Origin: Deltaproteobacteria bacterium
GTDB lineage: Bacteria; Myxococcota_A; Polyangia; HGW-17
Direction: 5' to 3'
NCBI GenBank assembly: GCA_016937155.1
Contig: JAFGWM010000005.1
Span: forward strand, 37,718 to 101,717
Length of the DNA: 64,000 bases
Of the stretch, positions 23,979 to 37,818 are shown piece after piece (position 1 is the stretch's first letter; the number at the start of each line of letters is the position of its first letter). The notes under the pieces are model-generated. The model saw only the letters and a program-made list of their open reading frames with translations, searched no databases and had not been told where the DNA came from. A program made the translations under genes and the position numbers.

Positions 23979-24006
23979 TTGCTTTTTGGATATCTGCCAG
24001 TATACT
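23979..24006 (+). promoter_or_regulatory. Sigma-70-like promoter TTGCTT-N16-TATACT for the Cys-rich protein gene
   Basis: ttgctt tttggatatctgccag tatact, followed by aaggagg RBS and ATG 24036. Confidence 0.6.
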
Positions 24007-24035
24007 ACGCTTTACTTCAAAAGGAGGATCTTATT

Positions 24036-25970
24036 ATGAAGAAGTTACTTAGTACATTAGCATTGGTTGGTGTTGTTGCTTTTGCAGCGTGTGATGATGA
24101 CTCATCAAATAACACCACAAACAACAATCAGAATTGTGGAAACGGTATAGTTGATGATGGCGAAGACTGTGACGGATCAGTGGACATCGTTTGTACAGAC
24201 CTTGACGGCTGGGGATTCGACGGTGGAACACTTACCTGTAACAGCGACTGTACCTTCAATATGACAGAGTGCACTGGCGGTCCCGAATGTGGTGACGGCG
24301 TTGCAGAAGGTGATGAAGAATGTGACGAAACTGATCTTCGTGACATGGACTGTACTGACGAGGGATTCACCAGTGGAACACTTTCCTGTAACACTGATTG
24401 TACACTGAATGTTGAATCATGTTCCGATGAAGAAGATCTTTGCGGAAATGGTGTTATTGACGGCGACGAAGTATGTGACGGCGCTGCACACGGCACTGCC
24501 ACCTGTGAAGATTATGGTTATTCCAATGGTTATCTTGTATGTAATACCGATTGCACAGGATTCAATCTCGGTAGTTGTGCCAATGTTCCTGGTGAGTGTG
24601 GTAATGGCGTTGTAGAGTGGGCTGAAGCATGTGACGGTGAGATTTCTGATACATGTGAAGATTATGGTTTTGATGGTGGAACACTTTCCTGTAATGATGA
24701 CTGTTCAGTAGATTTCAGCGCATGTATCGGTGATTACTGCGAACTTAATGACTGGTATGGCGATGAATACTGTGATGCATGCGAGCTCATGGGTGGTGTT
24801 CACGATCCAGATTGTGACTCAGTCTGTTCAGAGAGTGATGGTACATGTGGAAGTTATCAGGATCAGCTCGTTGGTTCTACAACATGTCTCGGCCTTGTAG
24901 GTACAGAGGACCCCGATTGTGGCGAATGTGGCAATGGTACATGGGATCAGTTCGGTACATACGGAAATCAGGTTGAAGACTGTGACGGCACCGATGTTGG
25001 CGGATATTCCTGTACAGATTTCGGTGATTCCTTTGCTGGTGGTACACTGGCATGCAGTGACAACTGTAAATATGATTTAAGCGGATGTATTCCTCCCGTA
25101 TGTGGAAATGGTATACTTGAAGCTGGTGAAACATGTGACGGTACTGACTTTGGTGGCGCAACATGTTCAACTTCCGGTGAATTTGATGATGGTGATCTTT
25201 CATGCAGTAATGACTGTACTGAAATAGTTACCACAGCATGTGTTGCTGCAACATGTGGTAATGACCTTGTTGGTGGCAGTGAAGATTGTGACAATGACAA
25301 CCTCAATGGTTCCACATGTTCCGACGTTGGTAATTATGATAGTGGTACACTTGCATGTGATGCCTGTTCATTTGATGACTCAGGCTGTGTTGAAGCAGTT
25401 TGTGGTAATGGACTCCTTGGTGGTGATGAAGTATGTGACGGTTCCGAACTCGGGGAACCCGGATTTGCTTGTACTGACCTCGGATACACCGGTGGTGATC
25501 TTTCCTGTCTTGATTGTTCAGGATGGTCTGCAAGTGAGTGCACAGGCTTTGAATGTAATGTAGCTGCTGACCTCGGTACTTTCAGCGGTACTGAAATTGT
25601 GGAAACCGGAGATATCTGTGACGGTGACGGCACAATGGTATTCAATGGCTATGTTGGAACTGATTACGGCGCAGACGGCACTGAAAAAGTTTTCACACTT
25701 ACTCTTGAAGCAGGTGCAAGTGTTAATATCGAATATGCTGGTGCTGATGATAACGTTATTATGGTTGTTACAGATTGTGGCGATCTTATGGGTTATGGCG
25801 CTGTTTCCGTTGATGCAGATTATGAGACTTTTGTTGAGACTCTTACTCTCACAAATGAAACAGAGGCATCAGTTACTTATTATGTAGTTGCAGATTTCTA
25901 CGAGTATGACTGTGCTGATGGCGCAGGAAGTGGTGAATTCACACTCACAGTTAGTGCACCTTCTAAATAA
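24036..25970 (+). CDS. Cys-rich multi-repeat surface lipoprotein (DUF4215-like repeats) with C-terminal PPC-like beta domain
   Basis: MKKLLSTLALVGVVAFAACDDD lipobox; about 10 repeats of CGNGxxxxGExCDG...CxxxGxxxGxLxCxxxC; ATG 24036 preceded by AAGGAGG. Confidence 0.9.
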   Translation: MKKLLSTLALVGVVAFAACDDDSSNNTTNNNQNCGNGIVDDGEDCDGSVDIVCTDLDGWGFDGGTLTCNSDCTFNMTECTGGPECGDGVAEGDEECDETDLRDMDCTDEGFTSGTLSCNTDCTLNVESCSDEEDLCGNGVIDGDEVCDGAAHGTATCEDYGYSNGYLVCNTDCTGFNLGSCANVPGECGNGVVEWAEACDGEISDTCEDYGFDGGTLSCNDDCSVDFSACIGDYCELNDWYGDEYCDACELMGGVHDPDCDSVCSESDGTCGSYQDQLVGSTTCLGLVGTEDPDCGECGNGTWDQFGTYGNQVEDCDGTDVGGYSCTDFGDSFAGGTLACSDNCKYDLSGCIPPVCGNGILEAGETCDGTDFGGATCSTSGEFDDGDLSCSNDCTEIVTTACVAATCGNDLVGGSEDCDNDNLNGSTCSDVGNYDSGTLACDACSFDDSGCVEAVCGNGLLGGDEVCDGSELGEPGFACTDLGYTGGDLSCLDCSGWSASECTGFECNVAADLGTFSGTEIVETGDICDGDGTMVFNGYVGTDYGADGTEKVFTLTLEAGASVNIEYAGADDNVIMVVTDCGDLMGYGAVSVDADYETFVETLTLTNETEASVTYYVVADFYEYDCADGAGSGEFTLTVSAPSK

Positions 25971-26223: not shown

Positions 26224-29200
26224 TTAGGCTGTTTTGATTAAGCCGAATCGAATAAGATTATCAATCCATGGAAATACGTGTCTGTCCTTGGGCATATCAT
26301 AAATCATCCTTTTTTTATCCAGCTCGGTGGTTATAAACTCTGTTGCATATAGTAGGGGAGACCAGTGATGGCACCTTTGAATCATGGATGGAATGTACTC
26401 TGATTTAAGAATGTCATTTGCAGCACTATCAATATTGTTGAAAAATCCTATAGCATCAGATACTTCTACCTGAGTATCATGGGTCATACTTCCAAGCTGC
26501 TTAGTCAGAATGTTGGACAGGAAAAACAGTGCTTCTGGAACATAGTCTTCATCTACAACCCCTCTAATAGTGGATGTTGGGCAATTCATTTTAAACTGAC
26601 CTTCTCTTGCCAGTTCTACAACCCCTGACTGGCTCAGTGATTCAATTCCTCCCATTAAATGAATCAGCAAGCGGGAGTCTAAAAATGCACCAAGGTTATC
26701 CAGGAAAAATTCAACTGCTTTTCCTGAAAAAACGGCCTGATAGAATTTTAAAAACTTGTCTACTTCAGCCATGGCCTGCATGAACTTAATATTGCCACCG
26801 GTTCCATGGGCGCTTCCATTTATTGCGCTGAACAGCAGGTTTCGGGATACAAGGCCTGATGCAAGTTTTTGCATATGGGGTGTTCCACCGTTAAGAATGG
26901 ATTCAGCTTTAAGAGCGTTGGCACAGCCCTGTGAATATCCGATTATTCCATAGGGTTTGGTAACCTTTTTAATTTCATCAATTATTTTCCAGGCATTAAA
27001 ATTCAGGCTTCTTGCAGTTTGGGTATCAGCCCGAAGGACATCAATTCCTCTTCTTTTTTTAAGTCTGGCGTAGGCATCCTCCAGTTCTCTTCCCATTGAA
27101 CCTTCTGTTACAACTCCCATACAACTGATAATACTGAAATTGTAGTTATCATCCGGGATATCCATTTTCAATCTGATGAACTTATCAGAAGCCAGAAATT
27201 TTCTGTCATCTGTTGAATGATAAAGAGATTCTATAATCTGCTCATGAAGAGTTCCTGCACGGGATGATCTTTTTTTCACCCACTGTTCCACGTTATCATC
27301 TCCGGAAACAACATTGTGATGAATACTTTGAATCATGAGAGCTTCATGACTTCTTGAAAACAGCTTTTTAAACAATTCAGAATTCAGAAAGGCAGGATTT
27401 TTCTCTATGATTGAACCAACTGAAGTGAATACCTTATTCCATGATTTGACTGCATCTTGTTGTCTTTTTTTCTCCCTTGGGGAAAAAGTGCATTTTGATG
27501 TTAGTGATTCAGCAGATTCAATTAATTTGAGAAGACTGTTTTCATTGTCCCTGAAACTAATCAGTTTATCAGAGTCAGTGTCTGTTGATCGGACATTCAA
27601 ATGAGCTTTAATGGCTGTGTATGGCGCAAACTTTTCCATTACCAGTTCACTCACCTGAAAAAGTTTTTCAATATAGCTTTCTCCTGCAAATCTTCCTCCT
27701 GCCAGATAATCCTTCATTGATGGAATACTTATTTCAAGTCTTGAGGATAAAAAACTCACCATATCCACTGGTTCTCGAAGAAGGTTCTGATTGAAATTAC
27801 AAAGACCATATAAAACAAATGCAAGTACTCTCGGGGAACCTTCACTTAATTCATCCAGAGTCTGTGTTATAAGAAACGCCGGGCTTTCCTTAAGAACATT
27901 AATAATCTGTGCAAAATTAATCTGGATAATTCTTTGAGAGAGTGGGGAACTGAGAGTGGACCTGAGCAGTATGGCAATCTCTTTTGGCCCGGCTGTTGAA
28001 TTGGAAATCATGCTTCCCAGTTTTCCAGTGTACTTTGGGGGTAGTTTCGAACAGACTGCATCCAGGAAAAAACTGATACTGAATCCTTGCGGCAGGTAAG
28101 TAAATCCCCCAAAATTTTCACTTACTTTATAAATCCTGTTTTTCATATCCAGTAAATAGTGCATGTGAAGTAAGTCATCGGATTTAAAAAGGTTTCCGTG
28201 GTTTTCGAGAATATAGGTCAGGACATGTCTTTCAAGATAATGTGAAATGCCGGCAATTTCCTCGGAAATAAACTGGTCAAAATTATTATTTTCCAGATAA
28301 CTGTAAATGCTCTCTGCAGTTGGAATTCCTTTTAAAACCTCAGTATATTCTCCCTTCAACCTGAACGGCAGGCAACGTTTAATTGGTTCAGATGAGCCTT
28401 TTAGATCAACAGGAGAAAGGACCAGAGACAGCCATTTAAGAGCACGGTGCAGTTCAAACTCGTATTCATCAAGATCAAACTGATTTCTCAGAACTGATTT
28501 CATAGTTTTTATATTAAGCCCATTGCCTTTAATTATTCCCCAGACTACATTCAGAATTTCTTCCCTCCAGGGGGAATCTGGTTTTACACAGATAATTTCA
28601 CATAAAATATCACTCAGAACTTCAGCTGGGATTGCATCAGAAGGATTTTTAATATTTTTATGTTTCAGGATACTATTGACTCTGATTATAAAATCCTTAA
28701 ACTTTTCAAGTTTTTTTGACAGTTCTGAATTGAAAAAGGAAAGTGAACCGCTGATTTTTTCCCAGCTTTCTCCTGATTCAATTATGTTTATAAGTTTTTC
28801 AGGATGCTTACCCGGGTTGAAAATTGCATTGAAAAAAGCAGCATCATACAGTCCCTCATCATTGCCTGATACGGAAATTCCCCCGCTGGAATTTATATGA
28901 AATCTGAGATCCCCTGATAAAAGTTGAGACACGAAAATGTCGAGGCTGTTATCGTCTGAATAGAGGACTGGTGATTTATCAAGGTTCCATATTATGTTAA
29001 AAGTGCTGGAGCCCAGCCCGCTGGAATCAAGAAGTCCCTCAAGTATGTCAATTTCTATTTTTGAGGGGGATACAGAAAGTCGCCTGTTCTGAAGAGAAGT
29101 CTCTAAAAAATTTATTGAAAGAACTGCTTTTGATGAATACAAATCCAGCACTGTCATGTTTTCTTTCTGTTCAGATTTTAGCCTGAGGGCCAGATCAATA

Positions 29201-30813
29201 TTTCCCTCAAATACGGTTTTTATTATTCCAGGGTCAATATTAAGTTCAGGAAGACCTTCAATGGATTTTTCTGTTTCCAGTTTTACATCGAATTTTGAAT
29301 TCAAATTCAAAGTGAGGTTTGTGGTATTGGATACTGAAAGATTTCCATCAAGTATGGACTGGCTAATTTCAGGGATAAATGAAGTTACACCATCAGTGCT
29401 GCGTTGTCCCCCAATAACTGCATAAGTTGCAATCCAGTTGAAAAACGCATCATCAATAGAAAACTCCGTACTTCCTTTAGGAGAAAAGATTTTTGCATAA
29501 CCATTGACTGAAATATTTTTCAGTACTGTTGAAAGAAGCATTTCTCCTTTAACCAGAGGATGGCTGTATTTGAAATCAGCTGAAAGTCTGGAAATTTTAC
29601 TGCTTTCATTGACAGTAATCTCGATGCTGGTGGAACTATCCATACCGGGATTTCCTCTTTCAAATGAATTCAGTATTGTTTCAATTGGAGATTCTTCAGA
29701 ATTATCTGAAATAACTGATACTTTAACTGAGCTGTTTAGTGTTTCCTGTCCGGAATGAAATCTTAGATCAGAGACTTCAAAAATTAATTTGTCACTGGAA
29801 TTATTACCTGAAATAACACCGGTAATATTTATGAAATCGTTGCTTTTTACAGATCCTTCTACATCTGCCCCGTCATGAAAAGAAGCATTGAAACCCATAT
29901 CTGGAAGCTGGCTTGTGGCAGTAAAATTGCCGGATATTCCATCAAGACTTTTCCCGAATTCTTTAGCGATTGCGAAAAAATCAGTAGTTCCTCCCATAAC
30001 ACTGGCACTTTCAAGAGGTTGTTCGCTCAATAGTTTTTCAAGGGATGCATGTACAGATGGAATTAAGGCATGGGGCAAAATAATGTTACTGAAGGACTTA
30101 ATGAGTTTTCCCTGGTGGTATATTTTTCCGCTGAATGCGAACTCCAGGACCCAGTTGTCTCCCTTTTTTCTAGCTTTCCCTGTTACTTTTTCCAGATGGA
30201 CCAGGGGAAGATTAGCAGATTTAAACTGGTTTTTAATATTTTGCGCTTTTAGTCCAAGGGTGTCTTTTAATTTTGTAAAACTTTTAGATATTCCATCATA
30301 ATTTATACTGCTACCGGTAAATCCACGAGTGAATTTTTCAGTGGTGGATTTTGCTTTCCCAATTAAATTTGAAGCAAATGCAGATACCTGGGAATCAGTA
30401 AAAAGTTCTTTGAGTAGAGCAACATCGTTATCAGAAAAGAGGGAGGGCAGCACAGAGAGTGTTTGTAAAACATTGCTTAATATCAGTGGCTTTGAAAATT
30501 TAAGTTCCAGATCCTTTAAAATTGAAAATCCATCGGGACCATCAAGCACAGGGCTTGCATCTGTTACTATGGAAACCGTGGTCAGTTCATCAATTTCAAC
30601 ATTGAAAGAGTTGTTTTTAGTAAGAAGAAAGTTGTAGGTTCCGCTTCTTAGCTCACACAGTAAATTAACTGAAACCCCGTGAATATCCCTTGCACTAAGA
30701 GATTTTATATCTGTTTTTATCCCTGAAGGCAGTGCAAGAGGTCTGAATTTTCCTTTGTTATCAGGTGACTCAAGAAAAAGATGTAGTTTTCCGGTGTTGG
30801 AACGTTTTTTCAT
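26224..30813 (-). CDS. Very large (about 1529 aa) uncharacterised protein with C-terminal alpha/beta-hydrolase (lipase-like) motif
   Basis: KPYGIIGYSQGCANALKAES (G-x-S-x-G); later VVDEDYVPE and SMTHDTQVEV as candidate Asp and His; start 30813 has a GAGGG upstream. Confidence 0.85.
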   Translation of the reverse strand: MKKRSNTGKLHLFLESPDNKGKFRPLALPSGIKTDIKSLSARDIHGVSVNLLCELRSGTYNFLLTKNNSFNVEIDELTTVSIVTDASPVLDGPDGFSILKDLELKFSKPLILSNVLQTLSVLPSLFSDNDVALLKELFTDSQVSAFASNLIGKAKSTTEKFTRGFTGSSINYDGISKSFTKLKDTLGLKAQNIKNQFKSANLPLVHLEKVTGKARKKGDNWVLEFAFSGKIYHQGKLIKSFSNIILPHALIPSVHASLEKLLSEQPLESASVMGGTTDFFAIAKEFGKSLDGISGNFTATSQLPDMGFNASFHDGADVEGSVKSNDFINITGVISGNNSSDKLIFEVSDLRFHSGQETLNSSVKVSVISDNSEESPIETILNSFERGNPGMDSSTSIEITVNESSKISRLSADFKYSHPLVKGEMLLSTVLKNISVNGYAKIFSPKGSTEFSIDDAFFNWIATYAVIGGQRSTDGVTSFIPEISQSILDGNLSVSNTTNLTLNLNSKFDVKLETEKSIEGLPELNIDPGIIKTVFEGNIDLALRLKSEQKENMTVLDLYSSKAVLSINFLETSLQNRRLSVSPSKIEIDILEGLLDSSGLGSSTFNIIWNLDKSPVLYSDDNSLDIFVSQLLSGDLRFHINSSGGISVSGNDEGLYDAAFFNAIFNPGKHPEKLINIIESGESWEKISGSLSFFNSELSKKLEKFKDFIIRVNSILKHKNIKNPSDAIPAEVLSDILCEIICVKPDSPWREEILNVVWGIIKGNGLNIKTMKSVLRNQFDLDEYEFELHRALKWLSLVLSPVDLKGSSEPIKRCLPFRLKGEYTEVLKGIPTAESIYSYLENNNFDQFISEEIAGISHYLERHVLTYILENHGNLFKSDDLLHMHYLLDMKNRIYKVSENFGGFTYLPQGFSISFFLDAVCSKLPPKYTGKLGSMISNSTAGPKEIAILLRSTLSSPLSQRIIQINFAQIINVLKESPAFLITQTLDELSEGSPRVLAFVLYGLCNFNQNLLREPVDMVSFLSSRLEISIPSMKDYLAGGRFAGESYIEKLFQVSELVMEKFAPYTAIKAHLNVRSTDTDSDKLISFRDNENSLLKLIESAESLTSKCTFSPREKKRQQDAVKSWNKVFTSVGSIIEKNPAFLNSELFKKLFSRSHEALMIQSIHHNVVSGDDNVEQWVKKRSSRAGTLHEQIIESLYHSTDDRKFLASDKFIRLKMDIPDDNYNFSIISCMGVVTEGSMGRELEDAYARLKKRRGIDVLRADTQTARSLNFNAWKIIDEIKKVTKPYGIIGYSQGCANALKAESILNGGTPHMQKLASGLVSRNLLFSAINGSAHGTGGNIKFMQAMAEVDKFLKFYQAVFSGKAVEFFLDNLGAFLDSRLLIHLMGGIESLSQSGVVELAREGQFKMNCPTSTIRGVVDEDYVPEALFFLSNILTKQLGSMTHDTQVEVSDAIGFFNNIDSAANDILKSEYIPSMIQRCHHWSPLLYATEFITTELDKKRMIYDMPKDRHVFPWIDNLIRFGLIKTA

Positions 30814-30850: not shown

Positions 30851-32641
30851 TTATTCATTAGCGATGAAGGTTTCCAGCCATTTCTGTTCCTCGCCAGTAA
30901 GGTATGGTGAAAGTGTGACAAGGCATTTTTCATGATAGTTACATACCCAGTTTTTTTGAGCTGAAGACAAATCATCAAAGTCGATAAGTCGATTATCCAG
31001 AGGACACCAGGTGATATTTTCAAACCTGAGAAATTTGTGACTGAGTTCTGTTTCAGGTGAATCTTCAACTGTAATATACATGTTTTCAATTCGTATACCG
31101 AAATTTCCTTCCTCATAATATCCTGGTTCTATGGTTGTCACCATTCCTGCTTCAAGAGGAACCCCCTGACATCTGTAGTAGCTTATTGCGTGAGGACCTT
31201 CATGAACCCCCAAAAACATGCCTACTCCATGTCCTGTGCCATGACCATAATTTAAAGCTTTATCCCATAAAGGTTTGCGTGCAATTGTGTCAAGCTGCTT
31301 TCCTGTAGTTCCTTCAGGAAATACTGCTGATGCAAGATCAATATGCCCCTTAAGCACCATTGTATACATTTTCTTCATATGCTTATCAGGTGTTCCAATT
31401 GATATGGTTCGTGTAATATCCGTTGTGCCATCCAGATACTGTCCACCACTATCGAGAAGATACAGGCCATTTCCAGTTATTGGTGAATTTTGATCCTGGG
31501 ATGCTGTGTAATGCACAATTGCTCCATTTTTTCCAAAGGCACTTATTGTTTCAAAGCTTTCTCCCCGGTTGTTTTCCTGCTGGTGCCGCAACTTACCAAG
31601 ATATTTTGCTGCAGAAACTTCAGTAATGCTTTGGCCGGATTTTATATTATTTTCAAGCCAGATAAGAAACTTAACCATTGCCACACCATCTCTGATATGA
31701 GAATTTCTCATCCCCTGTAGTTCTGTCGGATTCTTTATTCCCTTCATTTTTTCAACACCCGAATTGACAACTTCAACATCAGAATGTTTTCTTATTATGT
31801 CCGCAAGTTTTACAGTCAGGGATGACCCGGATATTAGTATTTTATCGTTTTCTCCACCCAGATTGTGAAGATCCTCTTCAAATCTGTGGTAAGGTTCAAC
31901 TTCAAAAGTACCACTTATTTTTTCCCACGCGGATTTGGAGAACTTCTCAATACCAGAATAAATAACCGCTCGTTCCATGGTTATCACAAGATATGAAATA
32001 AATACCGGTGTGTACTTTATGTCGTTTCCTCTGAGATTTGTAATCCATGCAATATCGTCAAGAGTTGAAAAAACAAGAGCCTTTCCATTCTTTGAATTGA
32101 GAACTTCTCTGATGGATTTTAGTTTATCATCAGATTTCAATCCGGTGAATCTTTCATCAAGGGGAAAAATTTCTCCATCGGGAAATTGGGGCCTGTCTTT
32201 CCATATGGCATCTACCAGATTTATGCCGGATGATTTGAGAATAATATTTTTTTTCTGAAGAACTGATTTCATTTCCAGAAATTCTGTTTCTGACATTATC
32301 GAGCCATCAAAGGCTACAACACTTTTCTCCTTAAGATATTTCAGCAGATACTCAGGTATTGATATGGAATCTGGTGTCATCATTTTGTGGAGTTCAATAC
32401 CGGTACCGGAAAGTTGAGCCTCCGCCTGTATGAAATACCTTGAATCTGTCCAAAGTCCTGCTCTGTCTTTTAAAATAACCAGATCTCCAGCACTGCCCGT
32501 GAATGAACTTGCAAACTGTCGTCTCTTCCAGTAATCCGGTACATACTCACTCTGATGTGGGTCCGTTGAAGGAATAAGAAAAGCATCATATCCGTGTTCT
32601 TCCATCAGTTTTCTTATATCTGAAACATTTTTTGCACTCAT
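30851..32641 (-). CDS. Xaa-Pro aminopeptidase / aminopeptidase P family (M24)
   Basis: YLLDSGGQYLDGTTDITRTISIG, GHGTGHGVGMFLGVHEGP, TIEPGYYEEGNFGIRIENM: metal ligands of eukaryotic-type long APP. Confidence 0.93.
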   Translation of the reverse strand: MSAKNVSDIRKLMEEHGYDAFLIPSTDPHQSEYVPDYWKRRQFASSFTGSAGDLVILKDRAGLWTDSRYFIQAEAQLSGTGIELHKMMTPDSISIPEYLLKYLKEKSVVAFDGSIMSETEFLEMKSVLQKKNIILKSSGINLVDAIWKDRPQFPDGEIFPLDERFTGLKSDDKLKSIREVLNSKNGKALVFSTLDDIAWITNLRGNDIKYTPVFISYLVITMERAVIYSGIEKFSKSAWEKISGTFEVEPYHRFEEDLHNLGGENDKILISGSSLTVKLADIIRKHSDVEVVNSGVEKMKGIKNPTELQGMRNSHIRDGVAMVKFLIWLENNIKSGQSITEVSAAKYLGKLRHQQENNRGESFETISAFGKNGAIVHYTASQDQNSPITGNGLYLLDSGGQYLDGTTDITRTISIGTPDKHMKKMYTMVLKGHIDLASAVFPEGTTGKQLDTIARKPLWDKALNYGHGTGHGVGMFLGVHEGPHAISYYRCQGVPLEAGMVTTIEPGYYEEGNFGIRIENMYITVEDSPETELSHKFLRFENITWCPLDNRLIDFDDLSSAQKNWVCNYHEKCLVTLSPYLTGEEQKWLETFIANE

Positions 32642-32654
32642 GAATTACTCCTGT

Positions 32655-34622
32655 TCAATTTCTTGTGAGGCTAATAGCAAGTTGACATTCAAGTGAGGCT
32701 CTCCAGTACATTTCCAGAGCCTTGATTTTTAGTGCAATATCCATTTCCTTCATTGTATTCCCAATGTTATAGAAAATTTTTGCACTGGGGGGGACTTCTC
32801 CAACCAGCTTCAATGCTCTTGCTGCATGGATTCGTGAGTTAAGCTCTGCATGTTTAAGCATGTGTACAAGAGATTTCTGCATTTTTACAGATTCAATATT
32901 TCCATCAGAATTTTTATTCACGCCCAGTCCATAGTGTTTCACCAGAAACATTGATGAGGCGAAATAACTTCCCATAGAACCTGCAATCTGTGCATAATAG
33001 GTAGCTATGCTTTTTTCTCCCCAGTTTTTACGGATAAGATTCTCTGGTATCTTAAGACTGTAAAATGCCTGAAGATAGTTGTTTGAATAGTCCATATAGA
33101 GATCCTGAGTATCTTTCATGGTTTTATTGTATTTTTTTGAATACTCTGTCAGGAGAACTTCATTGATATAGTTGAGATTCGCCTGAGCACTGGAGATGAT
33201 GGTTTTCGCAATTTTTTTCACCCTGTCTTCATTAATTTTTACAGGTTTTCTTGAAAGTGTTTTAAATTCTAGGAAATCCAGAGCTTTTTCAAATTTAAGG
33301 CGTGCAAGATTATATCTGTAAGTGGCGCTTCTGAGATATCTGATAATGTATCCAACGATACCTTTTACATTTTTTTTCTCGGCAAGAGCCTTTTTGTATA
33401 CTGGCATAAGTTTTTTAACCACGCCACTTTTTGTGCTGGCATCATACATATATCCGAATGAACCAATCATCTGTTCGTAGGCGGATATCATTGCTATCAA
33501 GTCCCCAACTGTTGTGGGTTTTGCTTTTTTCAGATAACTAAGACCCTTGCCAAGATCACTTACCATTGGGGAAATAAGATTTTTTTGTAAAGCAGCGTCT
33601 AAAACAGCAGGATCCTTTGACAGGAATAATATTTTGTAAAACATTCCATACCAGAAACTTGAAAACGAATTCCCACCACCCCTCTGGGAAAAATCATAGG
33701 CGCTTGCCATTGAACCCTCCCGGAGTAAGTCAACGGCCTTATCAATATATTTTTTTGCAACTGACAGTTTTCTCGATGCTCCTGGGGCATACTGCAGTTT
33801 TTGTTCCTGAAATTTAGTGGAGTATTTTAAATAGTACTGATTCCAGGAACCAGCCTTTTTTCGAAGGAGATTTATCATCTCTATTGATAATTCCATTGAT
33901 TTGGAATCAATTGGCTCCGGTTTAGGAAGTTCTTTTCCTGTTAGGAGTTTGAATGCATCATACACTGTGCTCATCTCTACAGCCTGTGCATTATTTTTCA
34001 GAGCCAGTTGTTGAAGATCTACAATTTTTCCTGTTTTCAGATCAGCATTAAATCTCTGCCCCACAGGGTAACCAAGAATTGTTTTTCCATCCTTGATGGC
34101 AGCTATGAATTTATTTGGAATTCCCCCAACAGGACCCACACTGCCATCTGGATTGACAGTTCCCGTCATAGTGACATTATCCAGAACCGGAGTCCCGGTC
34201 ATTGCGGCTATGATTCCTGCAGTAAAAAGTGCTCCGGCACTGGGGCCATCAATGTATCCCTGTCCTCTAACATTAATCGCATATTCATCCAGATCCCGTC
34301 CCACTGCCAGAGCTGCCTGCATAGATGCTATCCACACGGCAGCCCGCCATTGTCCGCCTAGCCCGCCACTAAGGTTCCCGCTGATACCAATATTGAGCTC
34401 ATTGTCTGAATTTGGACTTACGGTGATTCTGGCTTTATGAGTTCCTCCACTGCCGGTAGAACTGTTATATGTCAGGTATGTAATATTTACTGAGGCTGAT
34501 TTTGAAACTTTTTTTGCAGGATAACTGAGTGTGGATCCTTTTTTAGTTCCTGAAGTGTGGCACCCTGTTATGACGGTAATTAATGTTAGTGACAATAGAT
34601 ATGTTAGCCTTCTGAAAACCAT
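32655..34622 (-). CDS. Lipoprotein with Lon-type (S16) proteolytic domain, no AAA+ module
   Basis: MVFRRLTYLLSLTLITVITGCHTSG lipobox; YIDGPSAGALFTAGIIAAMTGTPV...MTGTVNPDGSVGPVGGIPNKFIAAIKDG: Ser (GPSAG) and Lys (PNK) of the S16 dyad. Confidence 0.85.
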   Translation of the reverse strand: MVFRRLTYLLSLTLITVITGCHTSGTKKGSTLSYPAKKVSKSASVNITYLTYNSSTGSGGTHKARITVSPNSDNELNIGISGNLSGGLGGQWRAAVWIASMQAALAVGRDLDEYAINVRGQGYIDGPSAGALFTAGIIAAMTGTPVLDNVTMTGTVNPDGSVGPVGGIPNKFIAAIKDGKTILGYPVGQRFNADLKTGKIVDLQQLALKNNAQAVEMSTVYDAFKLLTGKELPKPEPIDSKSMELSIEMINLLRKKAGSWNQYYLKYSTKFQEQKLQYAPGASRKLSVAKKYIDKAVDLLREGSMASAYDFSQRGGGNSFSSFWYGMFYKILFLSKDPAVLDAALQKNLISPMVSDLGKGLSYLKKAKPTTVGDLIAMISAYEQMIGSFGYMYDASTKSGVVKKLMPVYKKALAEKKNVKGIVGYIIRYLRSATYRYNLARLKFEKALDFLEFKTLSRKPVKINEDRVKKIAKTIISSAQANLNYINEVLLTEYSKKYNKTMKDTQDLYMDYSNNYLQAFYSLKIPENLIRKNWGEKSIATYYAQIAGSMGSYFASSMFLVKHYGLGVNKNSDGNIESVKMQKSLVHMLKHAELNSRIHAARALKLVGEVPPSAKIFYNIGNTMKEMDIALKIKALEMYWRASLECQLAISLTRN

Positions 34623-34773
34623 ATTTCTCTCCCCGGTGTATATCCCGGAATACGGGAATGGTATTTGGAATAAACTTTCTTTTCCTCGAACAACTGTTAA
34701 ATTATGCTGAGATTTCTCTTTCAAGGCAACTGTTTTTTCCTTTGCCTTCATATGATAGAGTAACGTCAACATC

Positions 34774-37700
34774 ATGCTGAACAAGTTTTTAAATTTTTCC
34801 GGGATTGAAAAAAAGGAATTGAGTGCTCTTTCAGTTATCTGTATCCGGGCACTGCTGGTTGCTTTTACTGTTGTAGCAACTTATTCATACCAGAGTGCAG
34901 TATTTTTGAATGTATTTCATTCCAGTAAATTAGTCTGGTTGTATATGGCAGTTGCTTTTGCAACTGTAATATTTTCATTCCCTTATTCGTGGCTTCATAA
35001 CAGGGTTGGAGAAAAAAATACTGATATTCTGTCAATGCTGTTTTTTGGCAGCAGCGGTCTGATAGTTTGGCTGTTTTCTGAACTGTTACTCTATCCGTTG
35101 ACGTTGTTTATTTTCACAATATGGATAAAACTGACTGGAATTTTTGCAACAATTAACTTCTGGCATTCTACGGTCAGAGCCTTTCCCTCCAGAAGAGCAA
35201 AGGTTCTTTTTCCGGTTATCGCAGCCAGTTTCAGTCTGGGAAGTGCATTAGCTGGAAAAATTGTATATTTTATTGCCACTTCCTATGGTGTGTCCACAAT
35301 ACTGCCTCTACTCATCGTAACAATTTTTCTTTCCATAATGTTTCCTGTGGGGAATAACATCAGTGATCGAGATACAGAGGGTACATCCTCCAGTAGAAAA
35401 ATATTCAGATCTGCGATTCAGATTCTTGCCGGAAACCCTCTGGCTATTTATATGACTCTTTTTATTCTGTTCAGTATACCGGTTTTCCTCAGCAGTGATT
35501 TTATTCTGAAAAAAGCTCTTCAGGAGACATATTCCAGAGATGAGATGGCTGCATTTCTGGGAAATTACCAGCTGTACATGAATCTGGGTGTTTTCTTTCT
35601 TCAGACGTTTTTTATGGGATTTTTAATGAAAAATCTCGGGGTTTCAAAACTGACTGTCTTTACCCCTCTTTTTCTTGCTGTTACTTTTCCCCTGCTTATA
35701 TTTAATCCGGTACTTACGTTTGCAATGCTTATTGCTGTATTTTCAGGTGTGTTAAGGCTGACAATTTATATCAACAGCCGTAATCAATTGATCACTCCTT
35801 TGGGAAATGCAGACAAGGAGGTTGTAAGTATATTTTTAAGGACTGTTATAGCTCCGGCAGGAACTGTTCTGACAAGCCTGTGTCTTTTACCTTTTAAATC
35901 ATCTTCCATACCGGTTCTGGCTTCCCTGGGAGTTGTTTTTGCTATTGGATTCGGTGTTTTTGGTTATCTTGCTGGAAGAGCATATAACTATGAGCTGGTT
36001 AAGGCACTTAAGAAAAAAACTCTGAACATCACTTCGAATGAAAAATTACCTCCATCACCTGACGCTTTGGTGCTGCAGAGTCTTCGGGATCAGGTAGTGA
36101 GCGCAGGATTTGAAGAGGCGTCATTTGCAGCAACTATTCTCGCAGAATACAGAGAACTGAAACTTCAGGATTTGAATACATTTTTTTCAAAAAACTATCA
36201 TAATATCGGTATATTACCCAGATTGAAAGCTATTGAACTGGGATTGTATCTGAAGCAATCAGAGAAAGAAGCTTTTTTTCATAAGGTTATGTTTGAATCT
36301 GATGACACACGAGTTCTGATTGAAGCTGTTAAGATTGCCGATCATGTAAGGGAACCATGGATCCAGCAGCTTTCAATGATACTTGTTTCATCAGGGGAAA
36401 ATTCTTTCCGTAAAGCCATGGGGTATTATCTGAAAACTGAAACTGATATATCTGATTCAGGTGTTGTGGAAGAACTGGCTTCAGAACTTAGTGATGGAGA
36501 TATAAACAGCAGTATACTTGCCATATACATCTGTAGTAAATATCAGTCCAAAAGTAACCTAGGAGTAATAGAAAAACTTCTGTATTCTCAGAAAGTGGAA
36601 GTTGTTCTGACAGCACTGAGAGCTATTGGCGACAATAAAATAGAGGAGTTATATCCTGATCTTTTTACACTTGCTGTTTCTTCGCAATTGAGACGAGCTG
36701 CTATTGATTCAATAAGAGCATGTGGTCTTGAAAAACAGTTCGCTGAAAAATTCTCATCGGAACCCAGGCTTGTCAGGCATGTTATCCGTATTTTGTGTCA
36801 GAATCCATGTTCAGAAAATATTGCAAAACTGAAGGAAATAATCAGCAGTGGAAGAATCTGGAAGATGTCCATTGCCCTTGGGGAAATAGAGAAAAATTCA
36901 ATTTCACATCTGAATAATTATCTTGATTATGATTTTCTACAGAACATGGGAGGACACTGGGTGGCACTGAATGCAGCACGCTATCTGCATAGAAGTGATG
37001 CTGCCACTTCTTTGTTTCTTGAAACAGAATCTACATTTGCCCTAAGATGTATTTTCTCACTATTAAGGATTCATAACCCCGATTTGGCCAGACAACTGGA
37101 AAGCATAGAAAAAAGTCTATCCACAACTGATAAGCATCAATTGAATGCTGCTCTTGAACTTCTTGAAGATTTCCCTGTATTTAATCAGTCTTCCTCAATA
37201 TGGTTTTTAGAGGGAAAACTATCCGAGGGTATCACCGGACTGGAATCAACATGCTGGAGGGATTTCAGCTCTATGACTGGCAGGGAGCTTGTGGGGTCTA
37301 CTGGTGATGAGGTCCTCATGAAAACATACAGTACTCTTGTTAATCTTGAAGGGAGTTCTTCAACCGAGGACAGGTTGAAGGATACGGCATTTCTTGGTGC
37401 TCAGTTAAGATTCAGTGGATTTTTCCTTAATCTTGCTACTGAGATCACTACAGAAATTGCTAGGCAGGGTGAGATAATAAGGTTGAAAGAAGGAGAGTTT
37501 CTTTTTAATGAGGGTGACGAGGGTGATGGGATTTATTTTATTCTTGAGGGAACGATGGCTGTGGAAATTTCAGGAAAAACAGTAAATACACTCAATGCAG
37601 GAACAGTACTGGGTGAAATTGCTCTCCTGGATAAAGGGAAGAGAAGCGCCTCTATCAGACCACTGAAAAACAGTGCTGTTCTCAAAATAAGTCCAAGACT

Positions 37701-37818
37701 TTTTGATGATATGATACAGGAATACCCCTACATTTCGAAACAGATTGCAATAACTCTTGTGGGACATATCAGAAGGCTCATACCTATTGCTGAAGGGGCA
37801 TCACATAGTGTGGAGTAA
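34774..37818 (+). CDS. Multi-TM transporter-like (MFS/NTT nucleotide-translocase-like) protein fused to helical repeats and a C-terminal cyclic nucleotide-binding domain
   Basis: About 11-12 TM segments in the first 400 aa; long alpha-helical middle; C-terminal LKEGEFLFNEGDEGDGIYFILEGTMAV...LGEIALLDKGKRSASI. Confidence 0.8.
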   Translation: MLNKFLNFSGIEKKELSALSVICIRALLVAFTVVATYSYQSAVFLNVFHSSKLVWLYMAVAFATVIFSFPYSWLHNRVGEKNTDILSMLFFGSSGLIVWLFSELLLYPLTLFIFTIWIKLTGIFATINFWHSTVRAFPSRRAKVLFPVIAASFSLGSALAGKIVYFIATSYGVSTILPLLIVTIFLSIMFPVGNNISDRDTEGTSSSRKIFRSAIQILAGNPLAIYMTLFILFSIPVFLSSDFILKKALQETYSRDEMAAFLGNYQLYMNLGVFFLQTFFMGFLMKNLGVSKLTVFTPLFLAVTFPLLIFNPVLTFAMLIAVFSGVLRLTIYINSRNQLITPLGNADKEVVSIFLRTVIAPAGTVLTSLCLLPFKSSSIPVLASLGVVFAIGFGVFGYLAGRAYNYELVKALKKKTLNITSNEKLPPSPDALVLQSLRDQVVSAGFEEASFAATILAEYRELKLQDLNTFFSKNYHNIGILPRLKAIELGLYLKQSEKEAFFHKVMFESDDTRVLIEAVKIADHVREPWIQQLSMILVSSGENSFRKAMGYYLKTETDISDSGVVEELASELSDGDINSSILAIYICSKYQSKSNLGVIEKLLYSQKVEVVLTALRAIGDNKIEELYPDLFTLAVSSQLRRAAIDSIRACGLEKQFAEKFSSEPRLVRHVIRILCQNPCSENIAKLKEIISSGRIWKMSIALGEIEKNSISHLNNYLDYDFLQNMGGHWVALNAARYLHRSDAATSLFLETESTFALRCIFSLLRIHNPDLARQLESIEKSLSTTDKHQLNAALELLEDFPVFNQSSSIWFLEGKLSEGITGLESTCWRDFSSMTGRELVGSTGDEVLMKTYSTLVNLEGSSSTEDRLKDTAFLGAQLRFSGFFLNLATEITTEIARQGEIIRLKEGEFLFNEGDEGDGIYFILEGTMAVEISGKTVNTLNAGTVLGEIALLDKGKRSASIRPLKNSAVLKISPRLFDDMIQEYPYISKQIAITLVGHIRRLIPIAEGASHSVE

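What the first reader, a model, noticed from the sequence alone, without database searches (positions are those of the whole stretch)
26224..30813. Giant orphan protein with a C-terminal lipase-like GYSQG hydrolase
About 1529 aa in a region otherwise of ordinary-sized genes. The N-terminal 1100 residues match nothing I recognise, while the C-terminus has GYSQG (26926-26940) and plausible Asp (VVDEDYVP) and His (MTHDT). No classical signal peptide. Candidate for a new large hydrolase or secreted effector family.
Basis: partly seen in the sequence, partly recalled or inferred. Interest (0 to 1): 0.65.

Follow-up and report, generated by a model that had tools for sequence, protein, structure and literature searches.

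The report
Giant Myxococcota lipase-like intracellular hydrolase family
A 1,529-residue protein with a lipase-type active site at its tail turns out to belong to a conserved, uncharacterised family found across the Myxococcota bacteria; it most likely cleaves a lipid-like ester inside the cell, with a long sheet-like front half that may hold the substrate.

Summary
The reading frame and GYSQG motif are real, but the protein is not an orphan. Relatives, mostly full-length (about 1,530-1,650 aa), occur in 15 of 96 near relatives and 34 (confident) of 379 Myxococcota genomes. All 28 relatives in a scan of 84,980 species bear Myxococcota, deltaproteobacterial or unnamed-bacterium titles. None was found in viral contigs or plasmids. 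The gene tree largely follows host families.

The C-terminal ~310 residues are a confidently predicted alpha/beta-hydrolase; its best solved matches are lipases and lipolytic esterases (MGS0156, Acinetobacter LipA, Burkholderia lipase). Conservation gives the probable triad as Ser1294 (43/43), Asp1446 (43/43) and His1483 (42/42).

Before it lie a ~560-residue helical block and a ~650-residue half of long amphipathic strands without a confident fold match. No signal peptide or membrane span is evident. Neighbours are mostly unconserved, except an M24 aminopeptidase next door in three GTDB families. A secreted toxin is unlikely. PHA or wax-ester/triacylglycerol storage as substrate is unlikely (synthases not found in this genome, rare in carriers). 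Best reading: a cytosolic lipid-ester hydrolase with its own beta-sheet platform; substrate unknown.

The parts
26224..30813 (-). Whole gene, 1529 aa plus stop; ATG start preceded by a GAGG ribosome-binding-like sequence
   Evidence: homologues
28864..30813 (-). N-terminal beta-sheet half, residues about 1-650: about two dozen long, mostly amphipathic strands with a poorly predicted helical insert at about 115-199
   Evidence: AlphaFold2 model pLDDT 83.9, pTM 0.77; strand amphipathicity above every shuffle; no confident fold match
27169..28851 (-). All-helical middle block, residues about 655-1215
   Evidence: AlphaFold2 model pLDDT 90.4, pTM 0.92
26227..27156 (-). C-terminal alpha/beta-hydrolase (lipase-like) domain, residues about 1220-1529
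   Evidence: (Foldseek probability 1.00 to lipases)
27100..27126 (-). SCMGVVTEG, residues 1230-1238, highly conserved loop after the first predicted core strand; probable oxyanion-hole loop (inferred)
26926..26940 (-). GYSQG nucleophile elbow; Ser1294 codon 26932-26934
   Evidence: invariant 43/43
26602..26811 (-). Helices between two core strands, residues about 1335-1404, in the position of a lipase lid (inferred)
26476..26478 (-). Asp1446 codon (D[T/S]QV motif), probable catalytic acid
   Evidence: 43/43
26365..26367 (-). His1483 codon (second H of HHW), probable catalytic base
   Evidence: 42/42; neighbouring His1482 is Cys in one homologue
30851..32641 (-). M24 Xaa-Pro aminopeptidase P-type gene, upstream on the same strand (37 nt between its stop and the ATG); recurring neighbour
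   Evidence: Pfam; neighbour analysis
32655..34784 (-). Lon-C-domain protein, upstream in the same gene run; a relative sits in the same place in L054 (G002)

Best explanation
The gene encodes a large intracellular (cytosolic or peripheral-membrane) serine hydrolase of an undescribed family found only in Myxococcota so far. The C-terminal alpha/beta-hydrolase attacks a carboxylic ester, most likely of a lipid or other hydrophobic acyl substrate, with Ser1294 as nucleophile, Asp1446 as acid and His1483 as base; helices between the core strands act as a lid. The N-terminal sheet of long amphipathic strands binds or shields the hydrophobic substrate or docks on membrane, and the helical block connects the two. 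Shown here: the gene, the family, invariance of Ser/Asp/His, and (by prediction) the hydrolase fold and the strand-rich N-terminus. Inferred: catalysis, lipid substrate, role of the N-terminal sheet, location.
For: Ser1294 43/43, Asp1446 43/43, His1483 42/42 in an alignment of 47 rows. C-terminal AlphaFold2 model pLDDT 90.4, pTM 0.92. Foldseek best hits 5d8m MGS0156 E=5.9e-6 probability 1.00, 9g8u Acinetobacter LipA E=9.7e-5, 4lip/2lip/1ys1 Pseudomonas and Burkholderia lipases, 2hih Staphylococcus hyicus lipase. MGS0156 hydrolyses olive oil, PLA and PCL (PMC5341072). A weak but in-register profile alignment puts GYSQG on GHSxG/AHSMG and FSAxNGSAHGT on a HGT-containing lipase segment, scores 30 and 26 against at most 19.5 for reversed controls. 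N-terminal strands have one hydrophobic and one polar face: mean alternation 0.87 against 0.37 in shuffles, maximum 0.54. No signal peptide or TM evident. Largely vertical inheritance: 14 label changes, the least possible, against 29 shuffled.
Against: No sequence-level match to any lipase family. No assay. Substrate not indicated by neighbours. The N-terminal fold has no confident structural match, and amphipathic strands occur in any beta-sandwich, so a lipid-binding role is only plausible.
Confidence: 0.6

Rival explanations
1. A bridge-like lipid transfer protein: the N-terminal sheet is an AsmA/TamB- or RBG-type hydrophobic groove that carries lipids to a C-terminal lipase.
For: Many long amphipathic strands. 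Foldseek top PDB hit is the bridge-like lipid transfer protein LPD-3 (E=6.3e-3), with LptD, ApoB and LBP further down. One homologue touches Pfam T2SSN at E=0.002.
Against: LPD-3 hit probability 0.08 and TM-score 0.08. The viral library gives an even lower E-value for a meaningless hit, a virus glycoprotein at 7.4e-4 with TM 0.06. Profile comparison with Myxococcota TamB scores no better than reversed controls. The RBG unit of five strands plus a helix/loop (PMC7613979) is not seen in the nearly helix-free run of strands at 393-650. No membrane anchor evident.
Confidence: 0.15
2. An alpha/beta-hydrolase acting on a non-lipid substrate (protein acyl group, polyketide/peptide thioester, or peptide), perhaps linked to the neighbouring M24 aminopeptidase.
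For: Thioesterases and palmitoyl-protein thioesterase-2 are also among the fold matches. M24 peptidase is adjacent in three GTDB families, in three arrangements.
Against: The best matches are lipases; M24 is not next door in most loci.
Confidence: 0.12
3. A depolymerase or lipase for storage granules (PHA, or wax ester/triacylglycerol).
For: Large, probably cytosolic, hydrophobic-ester-type hydrolase; MGS0156-like fold.
Against: The own genome has no PhaC_N and no WS/DGAT match (95% complete). Only 4 of 34 confident carriers have PhaC_N and 3 of 34 WS/DGAT, against 131 and 168 of all 379 genomes. Phylogenetic non-independence was not corrected.
Confidence: 0.06
4. A secreted effector or toxin with a C-terminal phospholipase warhead.
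For: Large size with a C-terminal catalytic domain.
Against: No signal peptide evident; no recognised immunity or secretion genes beside it and mostly unconserved neighbours; one copy in the own genome; the catalytic end is the most conserved part, unlike polymorphic toxins; host-congruent tree.
Confidence: 0.05

Closest known systems
Carboxylesterase MGS0156 (PDB 5d8m; metagenomic lipolytic and polyester-degrading esterase)
   Same: Best fold match of the C-terminal half (E=5.9e-6, probability 1.00); serine alpha/beta-hydrolase outside named hydrolase families (PMC5341072)
   Different: 332-residue chain; 13% identity; no beta-sheet half or helical block
Bacterial true lipases (Burkholderia cepacia, Acinetobacter LipA, Staphylococcus hyicus, Geobacillus)
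   Same: Hydrolase fold, GxSxG elbow, Ser-Asp-His order, helices in lid position, in-register though weak profile alignment
   Different: The matched chains are about 290-390 aa enzymes; this one is 1529 aa, without an evident signal peptide and without a significant sequence-level match
AsmA/TamB and RBG bridge-like lipid transfer proteins
   Same: Very long amphipathic beta-strands in series
   Different: No significant fold or profile match, no RBG repeat unit, no anchor helix; fused to a hydrolase

Membership tests
alpha/beta-hydrolase superfamily | alpha/beta-hydrolase fold | tested here: met
   pLDDT 90.4 model; Foldseek probability 1.00 to many alpha/beta hydrolases
alpha/beta-hydrolase superfamily | Nucleophile-acid-His triad in this order, conserved | tested here: met
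   Ser1294, Asp1446, His1483 invariant wherever the homologue covers the site
alpha/beta-hydrolase superfamily | Triad residues within hydrogen-bonding reach | not testable with these tools
Bacterial lipase families (Pfam Lipase_2 and others) | Significant sequence profile match | tested here: not met
   No Pfam or NCBIfam hit; hhalign to Lipase_2-matching Myxococcota sequences below significance though in register
Bacterial lipase families (Pfam Lipase_2 and others) | Hydrolysis of long-chain acylglycerols | not testable with these tools
   needs an enzyme assay
RBG bridge-like lipid transfer superfamily | Repeats of five strands plus a helix/loop crossing the groove | tested here: not met
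   Predicted strands run from about 393 to 650 without a helix after each five (definition PMC7613979)
AsmA/TamB superfamily | Profile similarity to TamB or AsmA-like models | tested here: not met
   Scores no better than reversed controls; one marginal T2SSN hit in one homologue
AsmA/TamB superfamily | N-terminal membrane anchor | tested here: not met
   No TM segment or signal peptide evident (hydropathy)
Polymorphic or secreted toxin | Variable C-terminal toxin domain with adjacent immunity gene or secretion signal | tested here: not met
   C-terminus is the conserved end, neighbours unconserved, no signal peptide evident

The most novel reading that the evidence does not exclude
A bacterial cytosolic protein that fuses a long hydrophobic beta-sheet groove, not detectably related to AsmA/TamB or RBG proteins, to a lipase, so that lipids are held or channelled and cleaved in one polypeptide.
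Probability: 0.2. Interest if true: 0.75.

Novelty: new variant of a known kind. Interest (0 to 1): 0.42.

Why it matters
It defines an unannotated family of very large bacterial serine hydrolases with a three-block architecture kept across much of the Myxococcota, and gives three residues to mutate and a clear domain cut, so its substrate and the role of the beta-sheet half are directly testable. If the sheet binds lipid, it would be a new way of pairing lipid handling with hydrolysis in the bacterial cytoplasm.

Tried and rejected
TamB homology of the N-terminus by hhalign: no better than reversed controls (a first attempt with badly chosen frames failed). T2SSN search in relatives: none. 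Accession PF13502 is not in the library. Viral-structure search: only meaningless hits, useful as a noise floor for the LPD-3 hit. Viral contigs and plasmids: no homologue. Storage-granule hypothesis by PhaC and WS/DGAT co-occurrence: disfavoured. Gene fusions: the longer frames (L072, L077, L078) look like read-through upstream of the aligned start; their extensions were judged by eye, not searched. Conserved operon: only M24 (and a Lon-like gene in one other genome) recurs. The weak Pfam CATSPERB hit (E=0.05-0.08, below cut-off, in this member only) was dismissed as chance.

Full report
Observation. The reading frame at 26224-30813 (-) is real: 1529 codons from an ATG preceded by GAGG. GYSQG lies at 26926-26940 as stated. 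Curated libraries and the PDB know nothing of it by sequence, and profiles or members of its family give no significant match either.

It is a family, not an orphan. The genome has one copy. Of 96 near relatives 15 match, the window's own genome included. Of 379 genomes spread over the phylum 35 match at E<=0.001; one of them (G248) is a weak partial hit, leaving 34 confident. A scan of one genome for each of 84,980 species found 28 loci, whose titles read Myxococcota, Myxococcales, Bradymonadales, Deltaproteobacteria, or unnamed proteobacterium/bacterium. None in viral contigs or plasmids. The scan starts from two conserved peptide patterns, so very distant relatives in other phyla could be missed. 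The tree of the C-terminal 890 residues needs 14 changes of host-family label, the least possible, against 29 for shuffled labels: inheritance is largely vertical, with many absences. The length, about 1530-1650 aa in most complete members, is kept.

Architecture. Two AlphaFold2 models with 39-40 sequences each give: residues about 1-650, a run of long strands with a poorly predicted helical insert (pLDDT 83.9, pTM 0.77); about 655-1215, all helical; about 1220-1529, alpha/beta-hydrolase (pLDDT 90.4, pTM 0.92). The hydrolase matches lipases and lipolytic esterases with Foldseek probability 1.00: MGS0156 (E=5.9e-6), Acinetobacter LipA, Burkholderia cepacia lipase, Staphylococcus hyicus lipase. 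MGS0156 has lipase and polyester-hydrolysing activity and falls outside named hydrolase families (PMC5341072).

Active site. In the family alignment Ser1294 is invariant (43/43), as are Asp1446 of the D[T/S]QV motif (43/43) and His1483 of HHW (42/42). In the model Asp1446 follows the strand at 1413-1419 and a helix, and His1483 follows the last short strand (1478-1480), the usual places for acid and base in this fold (established knowledge of the fold). A weak profile alignment to lipase-like sequences of the phylum is in register at the nucleophile elbow and at the FSAxNGSAHGT segment, above reversed controls, but not significant enough for membership.

N-terminal half. Most of its strands carry one hydrophobic and one polar face: mean alternation 0.87 against 0.37 for shuffles, never above 0.54 in 500. 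That fits a one-sided sheet such as a lipid-binding groove, but also an ordinary sandwich. The top fold match, a bridge-like lipid transfer protein (E=6.3e-3, probability 0.08), is no better than a meaningless viral glycoprotein hit (E=7.4e-4, probability 0.13, TM 0.06). TamB profile comparison fails against reversed controls. The RBG unit (five strands plus helix/loop; PMC7613979) is not seen. So the fold of this half is unassigned and the lipid-groove idea is only a possibility.

Location and context. No signal peptide or TM segment is evident by hydropathy in the window protein or as a family feature, so a cytosolic or peripheral location is likely; no dedicated signal-peptide predictor was available. 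Neighbours are mostly different in every lineage. An M24 Xaa-Pro aminopeptidase P gene is the immediate neighbour in three GTDB families: f1 (the window and two other genomes; upstream on the same strand, a few tens of nucleotides away), f13 (two genomes; directly downstream, touching or overlapping) and f58 (one genome; convergent and overlapping). The link is suggestive only; an old shared position with local rearrangement would explain it. In the window the order Lon-like - M24 - hydrolase recurs in L054.

Function. Storage-polymer or storage-lipid hydrolysis was tested by co-occurrence: no PhaC_N or WS/DGAT was found in the own genome, and carriers have them rarely (4 and 3 of 34, against 131 and 168 of 379). 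Phylogeny was not corrected for, but a dedicated storage depolymerase would not be expected to show this pattern. A secreted toxin is disfavoured by location, neighbours, single copy, conservation of the catalytic end and vertical inheritance. The most likely role is hydrolysis of a cellular lipid or other hydrophobic acyl ester, with the large N-terminal parts presenting the substrate or meeting the membrane surface. The substrate is not known.

Verdict. A new family with a familiar catalytic fold and an unfamiliar architecture: new variant of a known kind.

Noticed in passing
23979-25970 (+): 663-aa protein with many cysteine-rich CGNG...CDG-type repeats and a lipoprotein-like N-terminus; no Pfam match.
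   Followed up: no
34774-37818 (+): 1014-aa MFS-like transporter with a long middle region and a C-terminal cyclic-nucleotide-binding domain.
   Followed up: no
32655-34784 (-): Lon C-terminal protease domain in a possible lipoprotein; Pfam gave no ATPase domain. A relative precedes the M24 and hydrolase genes in L054 too.
   Followed up: partly
30851-32641 (-): M24 aminopeptidase P is the immediate neighbour of the hydrolase gene in three GTDB families in three different arrangements.
   Followed up: partly
L047 5531-10318; L038 233-5104: Two homologues are each split by a single in-frame stop (208 + 1387 aa; 1106 + 517 aa) in their metagenome assemblies: real disruption or sequencing error, not resolved.
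   Followed up: no
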